From NCBI GenBank assembly GCA_004565275.1, contig SDOX01000016.1:443-64442 (forward strand): a stretch of DNA of 64,000 bases, written 5' to 3'. A program made the translations under genes and the position numbers. Under the pieces are notes generated by a model, which did not search any database, had not been told where the DNA came from, and was given only the letters and a program-made list of their open reading frames with translations. Positions 1,262 to 4,600 of the stretch are shown here, in pieces (within the stretch, counting starts at the first letter, position 1; each line of letters starts with the position of its first letter). The stretch comes from Nannochloropsis salina CCMP1776 (Eukaryota > Sar > Eustigmatophyceae > Eustigmatales > Monodopsidaceae).

Positions 1262-1611
1262 CTGAAGCACATTTTTCTTAAAGCTCCCTCCGCAGGGATA
1301 TAATTCGGGGAATACGGTCCTCAGTACTCGCGTGTAGGTGAGAAGTGATGAATTCCAAAGATTGGGGCTAGACGGCGACCTTCACGACTTTTCCTGGGAA
1401 AGCAAATTTTCTGTGTAGTGGATGAAGCGTGTCTACTGAAGCACATTTTTTTTAGAGCTCTCTCCGCAGGGATAATAATTTGGGGAATACGGTCCTCAGT
1501 ACGCGCGTGTAGGTGCATGAAGTGATGAATTCCAAAGATTGGGGCTAGACGGCGACCTTCACCACTTTCGCTGGGAAAGCAAAATTTCTGTGTAGTGGAT
1601 AAAGCGAAGGA
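1262..1611 (-). repeat. tandem duplicate of a ~170-bp unit carrying a terminal propeller exon
   Basis: Two adjacent ~170-bp copies (about 1262-1430 and 1435-1605) each carry, on the minus strand, an acceptor-like CTACACAG, a short in-frame stretch resembling the first half of a repeat exon ([14 protein letters not shown]), then TAG. The copy nearer the gene (1545-1587) fits in phase as the last exon of the collagen/propeller gene; the outer copy is a duplicate beyond the stop. They are about 85-90% identical by eye. Confidence 0.7.
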
Positions 1612-4600
1612 TGGCAGGAATCCAAGGCTTAACGCGGTGGAATGCTCGGCATTGCATGCGGTGGTTTGCTTACCCGAAATAGGCGTAGTTCCCGCTTATG
1701 ACTGATGTACTTATATCAGCCGCGTTGTCGAGAGTGAGGCTGTCTACTTCACTCAAGGGGGTCAGAGCTACCCTCACTAGTTTGCCTGGGTTAGTATCAG
1801 TCCTGTTTGTAGGATGAAGGCAGGCTCGTAAACAGCTTAGAGGGCACGACGTGCCTCGGCGTTTGCATTTTTTTTGAACCTTTACTTACCCGAAATACGC
1901 GAAGTCCCCGCTTACAACCGAGGTGGTCAGGCTCACTGAGTTGTTGAGAGTAAGGCTGTCGGCTAGAGTGAAGGTGAGCAGGTCCACCTTCAGCACTTGG
2001 GCTGGGTTCTCCTCAGTCCTGTGTATTGGGTAAGCCACATTTCATCAGCAGCTTATAATGGATGATGCGATGTGGCGCCGTGCATTTGAGAAGCCTTTCC
2101 TTACCCAAAATACGCGTAGTCCCCGCTGACAAATGACGTGCTTAATCTGATAGTCCCGCCAGCAATAGTCAGGGTGGTAGTTTCAGTCAAGTTCGTGAGA
2201 GCAAACTTTGCAACTTGCCCACGTGAATTCCTATATGTAGAGAATAGCAAAGCTTATCAGTAGTTTACAGAGCATGATATGCTATGACACTATGCATGTT
2301 ATTTAATCCGTGGTATACCCGAAATAGGCGTTGTCCCCGCTAATGACCGACGTTGATAAAAAATCGATTGGTGAAGTTACGCGGGTCGTCTCACTAAAAG
2401 TGGTGAGATCCACCTTTATCACCTTTGCCGGGTTAGTATTAGTCCTGTGTTTATAATATAGCCAACTTTATGAGCGGCTAGGAGAGCATGACTTGCCACT
2501 AAGCTATGCATTTGTTTGATGTCTTTGCTTACCCGAAATACGCGTCGTCCCCGCTCGCAACCGACGTGAGTATATTAGCGGTGTCGCTGAGAGTCAGGCG
2601 ACCTACTTCAGTGAAGTTGGTCAGAGCCACCTTCACCACTGTGCCTGGGTCGTTATTAGTCCTGTGTATAGGGCATAGCCACATCAGTGGCCTAAAGCAC
2701 GGTATTGTACGGCACTGTGCATATTATGGCTTTGCTTACCCAAAATATGCGTTGTCCCCGCTCACAACTGACGTGGCTAGATTTCCGCCGGCGATGAAAA
2801 TGGTCGTAATTTGAGTAAAGTTGGTGAGAGACACCTTTGATAGACCGCCTGCTTGAGCGTTTGTTCTATTTATAGGGTCAAGCCACGTTCATAAGCCGCT
2901 AAGTGAGCATAACAGGCGACGGTACTGTGCGTTTCTTTAACATTTGCTTACCCGAAATACGCATATTCGCCGCTCACAGCCGATGAGCCTAAAAAGAAAC
3001 TGCCTTGGAGAAAGAGGCTGTCCACCACCGTGAGAGGAGGCTCTTCCAACATACTCTCACAGAATAAAAAGCATCTAGTATAAACCTCGTATTCATTCTC
3101 CTTGCAGTCCGCGATATCGCTTGGATCCGTATAAATAGCCTGTAGACATGGTAATAAATAAAGATTTAAGAACCGAAAACATGGGTTAAAAGAATCGACA
3201 ATGTGGACAGCGTTTTCTTCTCAACATCAAAACCTATGAGACGTACGTACCTCACAGAGGACAAAGGATTGCGTTAAGTCCGCCTCACAAGCATCTTCAC
3301 AAAGTATGACGTTAGCAGACCTCACAGCTCCTGTTTCCCCCTTCGATCCCGTGGCGCCCGTCGCGCCTATACCACCTGTAGCGCCCATAGGACCCGTTGC
3401 GCCGGTACCACCCGTAGCGCCGGTAGCGCCAGAAGCGCCCGTAGCGCCCATCGCGCCAGTAGCGCCCGTAGCACCCGTATCACCCATCGCGCCGGTAACA
3501 CCCATCGCGCCGGTAACACCCGTAGCCCCGATAGCACCCGAAGCGCCGGTAGCGCCCGTAGGACCCGTCGCACCGGTGCCGCCCATCGCGCCGGTAGCGC
3601 CCGTAGTGCCCGTATTACCCGTCGCGCCGGTAGCGCCCGTAACACCCGTATCACCCGTCGCGCCGGTAGCGCCCGTAACACCCGTATCACCCGTCGCGCC
3701 GGTAGCGCCCATTGCGCCGGTAACACCCGTAGCCCCGGTAGCACCCGGAGCGCCGGTGACGCCCGTATCACCCGTCGCGCCAGTAGCACCCATCGCGCCG
3801 GTAGCGCCCGAAGCGCCGGTAGCACCCGTAATGCCGGTAGCACCCGTAGGACCCGTCGCACCGGTGCCGCCCGTCGCGCCGGCAGCGCCCGTAGTGCCCG
3901 TATTACCCGTCGCGCCGGTAGCGCCCGTAACACCCGTATCACCCGTCGCGCCGGTAGCACCTGTAGCGCCCGCATCACCCGTCGCGCCGGTAGCGCCCGT
4001 GGCGCCCCTAGCGCCCGTATCACCCGTCGCGCCTGCAGCACCCGTGGCGCCCCTAGTGCCCGTACCACCCGTAGCGCCTGTAGTGCCTGAGGCGCCCGTT
4101 GCGCCGGTAGCGCCCGTAGCACCCGTCGCGCCAGTACCACCCGTAATGCCGGTAGCGCCCGAAGCGCCGGTAGCGCCCGAAGCGCCGGTAGCGCCCGTAA
4201 TGCCGGTAGCGCCTGTAGGACCCGTCGCACCGGTGCCGCCCGTCGCGCCGGCAGCGCCCGTAGTGCCCGTATTACCCGTCGCGCCGGTAGCGCCCGTAAC
4301 ACCCGTATCACCCGTCGCGCCTGTAGCACCTGTAGCGCCCGTATCACCCGTCGCGCCGGTAGCGCCCGTGGCGCCCCTAGCGCCCGTACCACCCGTAGCG
4401 CCTGTAGTGCCGGAGGCGCCCGTTGCGCCGGTAGCGCCCGTATCACCCGTCGCGCCAGTACCACCCGTAATGCCGGTAGCGCCCGAAGCGCCGGTAGCAC
4501 CCGTAATGCCGGTAGCGCCTGTAGGACCCGTCGCACCGGTGCCGCCCGTCGCGCCGGTAGCACCCATAGTGCCCGTATTACCCGTCGCGCCGGTAGCGCC

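What the first reader, a model, noticed from the sequence alone, without database searches (positions are those of the whole stretch)
1545..3139. Subtelomeric gene built by exon-per-repeat duplication
Seven successive 126-129 nt exons each encode exactly one ~42-residue repeat, all with the same split-codon phase (G|GG) and with introns of nearly constant length (78-88 bp). The 210-220 bp exon-plus-intron unit is therefore a self-contained, phase-neutral cassette that can be gained or lost by unequal exchange without breaking the frame. Joined to a collagen-like domain next to a telomere, this looks like a system for varying a surface protein. I do not know a described collagen plus propeller-blade protein with this gene structure.
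Basis: partly seen in the sequence, partly recalled or inferred. Interest (0 to 1): 0.8.

Follow-up and report, generated by a model that had tools for sequence, protein, structure and literature searches.

The report
Telomere-end stalked seven-blade propeller gene
At the ends of its chromosomes a marine microalga carries a family of genes for secreted proteins that look like a stalk topped by a seven-bladed wheel; each blade has its own exon, the number of blades is nearly always seven or fourteen, and in the younger members a few residues predicted to sit on one face of the wheel change unusually fast, as expected of a recognition surface.

Summary
The gene, 1.4 kb from a telomere of Nannochloropsis salina CCMP1776, encodes a signal peptide, a beta-sandwich plus Cys module, a 154-triplet collagen-like stalk and a beta-propeller. 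It has six, not seven, full blade exons (126-129 nt), with phase-2 (GG|G) introns. A 188-nt exon and a 43-nt last exon carry the two parts of the seventh blade, so the ring can close.

Fifteen further arrays were found, 12 at contig ends. Of 13 complete arrays ten have 7 blades, two have 14 and one (frameshifted) has 4, so single cassettes are not freely gained or lost. In seven homogenised relatives blades no longer correspond by position, introns are more conserved than exons, and codons 2, 23, 30 and 32 of the unit show diversifying selection; 2, 30 and 32 fall in loops of one predicted propeller face. This closely parallels the fungal NWD non-self-recognition propellers.

Best reading: a telomere-resident, concertedly evolving family of stalked recognition propellers. 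Splicing, surface location and ligand are inferred; the window's own blades are old and diverged.

The parts
1..173 (.). telomere (CCCTAA)n; the 442 bases of the contig before the window read N
4739..5638 (-). exon 1, first part: signal peptide (by eye), beta-sandwich domain and Cys-rich module
   Evidence: open frame; relatives in N. gaditana and N. salina; model of family member P0004, block pLDDT 68-91 over residues 31-170, generic beta-sandwich matches
3323..4708 (-). collagen-like stalk, 154 uninterrupted G-x-y triplets, mainly GAT
   Evidence: PF01391, 192 bits
3251..3322 (-). end of exon 1: first part of the Cys linker, followed by donor GTACGT
2952..3139 (-). exon 2 (188 nt): rest of the Cys linker plus three strands of the closing blade
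2740..2865 (-). exon 3, blade unit (126 nt)
2533..2661 (-). exon 4, blade unit (129 nt)
2319..2444 (-). exon 5, blade unit (126 nt)
2105..2230 (-). exon 6, blade unit (126 nt)
1890..2018 (-). exon 7, blade unit (129 nt)
1674..1802 (-). exon 8, blade unit (129 nt)
1545..1587 (-). exon 9, 43-nt terminal exon, [17 protein letters not shown]: last strand, would close the ring; a 43-nt last exon was also read in the 9 other telomeric arrays that have one
1256..1606 (-). 177-bp tandem duplication that includes the terminal exon; the downstream copy (about 1410-1368) also reads G|KFAFPGKVVKVAV-stop, a possible alternative last exon

Best explanation
The window holds one member of a chromosome-end gene family of Nannochloropsis salina. 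Members encode a secreted 'lollipop': an N-terminal module, a stalk (collagen-like or Pro/Thr-rich) and one or two seven-bladed beta-propellers with one exon per blade unit. Shown from sequence: gene structure, family, telomere position, blade number 7 or 14 in 12 of 13 complete arrays, a seventh blade split between the first and last blade exons, loss of positional correspondence between blades of paralogs, and diversifying selection at codons 2, 23, 30 and 32 of the unit in the homogenised members. Inferred: the exons are spliced, the propeller closes, codons 2, 30 and 32 form one exposed face, units are exchanged by gene conversion or unequal crossing-over, arrays with complete rings are the ones kept, and the varying face binds a changing partner (another cell, a virus, a bacterium or a surface glycan).
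Against: No transcript was seen. The public protein NSK_007818 (P0041) ends at the first blade donor, read through to its TGA. Diversifying selection is shown in seven homogenised paralogs (C46 left out), not in the window's own gene. Only codons 23 and 30 pass a Bonferroni bound, 23 lies in a strand and not in the variable face, codon 4 is variable but not positively selected, and the synonymous rate is also raised at codons 2 and 32. C46, homogenised and complete, has 4 blades. Frames break in the stalks of C49 and C46, and in C17 the N-terminal module and the blades are not in one frame; the assembly is 454/Illumina. The fold was predicted for a relative; the model of the algal member P0004 failed over its propeller. 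Seven or fourteen is also common in database relatives, so the number reflects the fold rather than the alga.
Confidence: 0.7

Rival explanations
1. One reading: a contingency-like system that changes the surface protein mainly by gaining or losing whole blade cassettes through unequal exchange.
For: Phase-neutral units of constant size next to telomeres; a partial extra unit inside an intron of C69 (L050:3839-3883); C46 with 4 units.
Against: 12 of 13 complete arrays have 7 or 14 units; the exception is frameshifted. In C37 the units are too diverged for recent exchange.
Confidence: 0.08
2. A conserved structural or enzymatic secreted propeller; the exon array is a fossil of its origin, and variation of loop codons is relaxed constraint, not recognition.
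For: Old, diverged arrays (C37, C41, C44, C75, C78, C69) keep seven blades with mean identity 35-59%. Overall dN/dS near 1 in the homogenised arrays could be partly relaxation.
Against: Nonsynonymous rate at codons 2, 30 and 32 is about 5-10 times the mean synonymous rate, other codons are conserved and several are under purifying selection, and the signal recurs in subsets and on an intron-based tree. Intron divergence is lower than dN within every array tested.
Confidence: 0.18
3. The arrays are not expressed: subtelomeric repeat debris, or genes read only up to the first blade donor, where GGG|TGA ends the unspliced frame.
For: The annotated protein NSK_007818 stops there. Some arrays are cut short: C62 by telomere repeats, C7 by the contig end, C70 a remnant. 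C46 is broken.
Against: One frameshift among 110 blade units. Purifying selection on several blade codons. The last exon keeps 43 nt and its stop in the 10 telomeric arrays in which it was read. The N. gaditana protein NGA_0613100 (P0004) reads on from blade to blade as the predicted junctions require, though its gene structure was not seen.
Confidence: 0.08
4. The constant introns are introner-type mobile introns inserted repeatedly at GG|G.
For: Introns of nearly identical length and sequence.
Against: All 40 scored genome matches to the intron (of 66 first-look candidates) lie in these arrays; they appear to move with the exon.
Confidence: 0.02

Closest known systems
Podospora anserina NWD/HNWD (het-d, het-e, het-r) WD40 propellers (PMC1805685, PMC2873952; passages read)
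   Same: Repeats of a propeller exchanged within and between family members; strong selection on residues that flank a conserved site in the d-a loop and the b-c turn of one face (codons 7, 9, 25, 27 there; 30, 32 and 2 here, with L31 and T3 conserved). There the propeller controls recognition.
   Different: There: HET-NACHT proteins and variable repeat number. Here: secreted stalked proteins, no HET or NACHT found, repeats not WD40 by sequence, an intron between the repeats, number 7 or 14 in 12 of 13 arrays, location at telomeres.
Tetrahymena 90-bp-exon LRR genes (PMC6564038; passages read)
   Same: Arrays of same-sized exons with phase-2 introns of characteristic length, young members concentrated in subtelomeric and pericentromeric regions, exon shuffling proposed.
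   Different: Leucine-rich repeats, thousands of genes, linked to a retrotransposon. Here a closed ring appears to set the number, and selection maps to one predicted face.
44-46-residue propeller repeats of database relatives, many named ones prokaryotic (P0001 and P0005 match Pfam DUF6923)
   Same: Same repeat, same split of the closing blade, often 7 or 14 units.
   Different: Other partner domains; no collagen or algal N-terminal module noticed in those looked at. Their gene structure was not examined.
Bacillus BclA-type collagen stalk with globular head (recalled, no call)
   Same: Collagen stalk that presents a C-terminal head.
   Different: Different head and anchor; not tested.

Membership tests
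Seven-bladed beta-propeller | seven four-stranded blades forming a closed ring | tested here: inconclusive
WD40 repeat family (sequence) | match to the WD40 profile | tested here: not met
   Pfam scan at E<=1: C37 collagen only; C1 propeller 12 rows, none WD40.
Collagen-like proteins | long G-x-y run | tested here: met
   154 triplets; PF01391 192 bits.
NWD/HNWD non-self recognition family | HET and NACHT domains | tested here: not met
   Only collagen in the Pfam scan.
NWD/HNWD non-self recognition family | concerted evolution with positive selection at paired codons of the d-a loop and b-c turn | tested here: inconclusive
   In homogenised paralogs: 30 and 32 (a pair) and 2, whose partner codon 4 is not significant. 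The window's own array is diverged and was not in the test set. Strand naming in WD40 terms is inferred.
Tetrahymena-type phase-2 exon arrays | consecutive same-sized repeat exons with phase-2 introns, subtelomeric | tested here: met
Tetrahymena-type phase-2 exon arrays | LRR repeats of 90 bp | tested here: not met
   126-132 bp propeller units in most arrays.
Introner elements | near-identical introns in unrelated genes | tested here: inconclusive
   40 of 40 scored matches lie in the family arrays, but only 40 of 66 first-look candidates were scored.
Subtelomeric antigenic-variation genes | mutually exclusive or switched expression | not testable with these tools
   No expression data.

The most novel reading that the evidence does not exclude
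Nannochloropsis keeps a telomere-borne repertoire of secreted recognition propellers in which the intron-flanked blade is the unit of recombination between chromosome ends. Conserved introns act as homology arms, the closed ring polices the number (7 or 14), and selection diversifies one face. It would be an extracellular counterpart, reached independently, of the fungal NWD allorecognition system.
Probability: 0.4. Interest if true: 0.87.

Novelty: new variant of a known kind. Interest (0 to 1): 0.78.

Why it matters
It joins three things known apart: exon-per-repeat arrays, telomere-end gene families, and propellers whose one face is under diversifying selection. It suggests how a repeat-built recognition domain can shuffle its units without losing its closed fold. 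It also gives a concrete, testable candidate for self/non-self, virus or bacterium recognition at the surface of an industrially used alga; none was seen in the listings of the ten paper searches made here.

Tried and rejected
Introner origin of the introns: not supported (40 of 66 candidates scored). Doubling of a 7-unit block to make 14: no clear peak at lag 7 (mean exon identity at lag 7 0.885 in C49 and 0.881 in C31, other lags 0.840-0.903), so the route from 7 to 14 is open. Pfam identity for the algal propeller: none reliable (C37 none; of the 12 C1 rows one, DUF5050, below its cut-off, has a stretch passing on its own). PDB by sequence with a C1 propeller piece: no significant hit (best E 0.061). 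Fold of the algal member P0004: propeller part failed (block pLDDT 24-45); its N-terminal part gave only generic beta-sandwich matches. Telomere census by pattern: one search listed only the first places of 815 matches and one search found six, so the share of telomeres that carry the family is not known. Adenine-directed (DGR-like) mutation: no such pattern at the variable codons. FEL on C1 alone (6 units) gave numerical warnings and no significant positive site. First exon ends were wrong and were corrected. Papers: ten searches; in the listed titles and abstract openings I saw no report of this family. Listings were capped (15 of 33; 20 of 58). Five papers were opened, as told in the full report.

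Full report
ORGANISM AND PLACE. The window is bases 443-64442 of contig C37 (1,073,291 bp) of a 26.5-Mb genome. Lengths of four contigs (70309, 897817, 50505, 170041) equal those given for Nannochloropsis salina CCMP1776 proteins NSK_007818, NSK_002055, NSK_000792 and NSK_005293, so this is most likely that genome. PMC6953503 (whole text read) describes it as a 454/Illumina assembly.

GENE. On the minus strand, nine exons give an uninterrupted 1127-residue frame: signal peptide (by eye), an N-terminal module, 154 G-x-y triplets, a Cys linker and the blade array. Six exons are full blade units of 126-129 nt. All seven introns that follow a blade end split GG|G, phase 2. The 188-nt exon before them ends with three strands of a blade, and the last exon (43 nt) gives one strand and the stop; hence seven blades, the last one made by the two ends. 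The phase-0 intron between collagen and linker, and the linker itself, are conserved in C1, C49, C46 and C31.

FAMILY. Exon-by-exon searches found 16 arrays including this one; the searches give lower bounds. Thirteen lie at a contig end; C78, C75 and C44 lie about 9-12 kb inside. Of the 13, 12 are read outward; the exception is the C70 remnant, which reads inward with telomere-type repeats directly before a partial blade. In ten telomeric arrays the stop codon is 246-1372 nt from TTAGGG repeats; in C62 the repeats begin 59 nt into the intron after blade 2. The stalk is collagen-like in C37, C49, C46, C31 and C1, and Pro/Thr-rich in C33, C64, C7, C62, C78, C69, C41 and C44; C17 shows the Pro/Thr-type repeat out of frame with its blades; C75 and C70 were not resolved. 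By its N-terminal module C37 is closer to the Pro/Thr-stalk gene C33 (75%) than to the collagen-stalk gene C1 (51%), although it shares the linker of C1. This suggests that modules are exchanged (inference; loss of collagen in the others is an alternative).

CENSUS OF THE N-TERMINAL MODULE. One search gave 66 rows; 45 were used, and 21 second fragments or weak rows were dropped. Of the 45, 22 (C37 included) have at least 60% identity to C37; all 22 lie within 7 kb of a contig end and point outward (median 2.5 kb). About 5% of the genome lies that close. Of the other 23, six are that close, five of them pointing outward. Six dropped rows have at least 60% identity: those on C100, C84, C70 and C37 are also near ends, one on C76 is about 22 kb inside, and one on C72 has unknown contig length. 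Some database proteins with this module carry other repeat heads (P0042, P0044-P0046).

NUMBER OF BLADES. Complete arrays: C37, C33, C78, C64, C17, C1, C75, C41, C69 and C44 have 7; C49 and C31 have 14; C46 has 4, with a frameshift in blade 2. C7 (contig end), C62 (telomere) and C70 (remnant) are incomplete. So 12 of 13 are multiples of seven (naive binomial tail 8e-10 at p=1/7); the genes are related, so this is not an independent sample. What weighs more is that of the seven complete arrays whose units have been homogenised (C33, C64, C17, C1, C49, C31, C46) six hold 7 or 14. In 192 database proteins (from; one search listed 120 of 415) a mechanical profile count over 130 internal runs gave 7 in 40 and 14 in 40; the other 50 were 5 (13), 13 (9), 3 (6), 4 (6), 6 (5), 12 (4), 8 (3), 11 (2), 9 (1), 10 (1); units can be missed and many proteins are partial. 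So seven seems to be a property of the fold, and single-blade gain or loss is not the main mode of variation.

EVOLUTION OF THE UNITS. 54 full units from seven homogenised arrays (C33, C64, C17, C7, C49, C31, C1; first units and C46 left out) were compared. Of the introns that follow them 49 are exactly 88 nt, three 87, one 89, one absent. Within genes dN is 0.10-0.18, dS 0.06-0.19 and intron divergence 0.02-0.10. Same-position blades of paralogs are no closer than others (C33/C64/C17/C7: 0.1556 against 0.1559, 235 of 500 permutations as low; C49/C31: 176 of 500; all six: 48 of 500). N-terminal modules of C33, C64, C7, C62 and C37 have dN/dS 0.22-0.55 in ten comparisons; blades have 0.89-1.18 between C33, C64, C17 and C7, and 0.52-0.68 between C1 and the others. 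A counting test gave omega 1.84 for codons 2, 4, 30 and 32 together (p=0.0015; codons chosen because they vary), 0.52 outside nine variable codons and 0.98 overall. A FEL-type likelihood test written here gave positive selection at codons 2 (p=0.004), 14 (0.036), 23 (0.0003), 30 (0.0001) and 32 (0.037); only 23 and 30 pass a Bonferroni bound for 43 codons; the synonymous rate is also raised at 2 and 32. On an intron-derived tree (49 units) codons 2, 14, 20, 23, 30, 32 and 40 came out. In C49+C31 alone: 23 and 30. In C33+C64+C17+C7 alone: 2, 23, 30 and 32. In C1 alone: none. Exchange between units violates the single tree these tests assume; the agreement of subsets and trees is the safeguard. 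Codons chosen as hot in C49/C31 are also hot in the other arrays (0.44-0.46 differences per nt against 0.08-0.10 in other codons and 0.06 in introns). The window's own blades are old: 48% mean amino-acid identity, introns 58%, so none of this selection evidence comes from C37 itself.

COMPARISON. In PMC1805685 and PMC2873952 (passages) the Podospora NWD WD40 repeats evolve in concert, with positive selection on codons 7/9 (d-a loop) and 25/27 (b-c turn) flanking conserved sites on top of the propeller. The algal pair 30/32 around conserved L31 and codon 2 beside conserved T3 fall in the equivalent loops, in a different sequence family. PMC6564038 (passages) describes Tetrahymena LRR genes built of 90-bp exons with phase-2 introns, the youngest in pericentromeric and subtelomeric regions. 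PMC8570151 (term search and two passages) on other eustigmatophytes has no occurrence of propeller or collagen. The ten paper searches gave no listing that reports the algal family (listings capped in 26 and 43).

LIMITS. No RNA evidence was available. The N. gaditana protein NGA_0613100 (P0004) reads on from blade to blade as predicted, but its gene structure was not seen, and it has six blade ends where its closest-looking N. salina relative, C44, has seven. NSK_007818 stops at the first donor. Surface location, ligand and the recombination route are inferred.

Noticed in passing
L043 (C62:165500-170041), position 4372: TTAGGG repeats begin 59 nt inside the intron after the second blade: a chromosome end apparently broken within the array and capped by telomere repeats.
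   Followed up: partly
L054 (C70:1-6000), first 450 bases: Telomere-type repeats lie directly before a partial blade and one full blade that read inward: another array apparently cut by a telomere.
   Followed up: no
L042 (C64:44500-50505), from position 5353: TTAGGG repeats start here, but the last 60 bases of the contig (to 6006) are not telomeric; possible chimeric join or interstitial telomere.
   Followed up: no
L050 (C69), 3839-3883: A partial extra blade unit (15 residues) lies inside a 170-nt intron of an array that still has seven complete blades; possible fossil of unit turnover.
   Followed up: no
window 1256-1606: 177-bp tandem duplication that copies the terminal exon; both copies read the closing strand and a stop.
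   Followed up: partly
window 174-258 and 422-506: 85-nt direct repeat (96%) directly beside the telomere; a short N-terminal-module-like match (window 259-354, E 8e-4) lies between the copies.
   Followed up: no
P0042, P0044, P0045, P0046: The same N-terminal module is joined to other repeat heads (P0042 weakly matches a DUF5122 propeller model, below its cut-off), so the heads may be interchangeable.
   Followed up: no
window 6038-6408: 185-bp tandem duplication, 96% matches, just upstream of the gene.
   Followed up: no
L045, L046 (C49, C46) and L044 (C17): Reading-frame breaks in the low-complexity stalks; sequencing error of the 454/Illumina assembly or real length variation.
   Followed up: no
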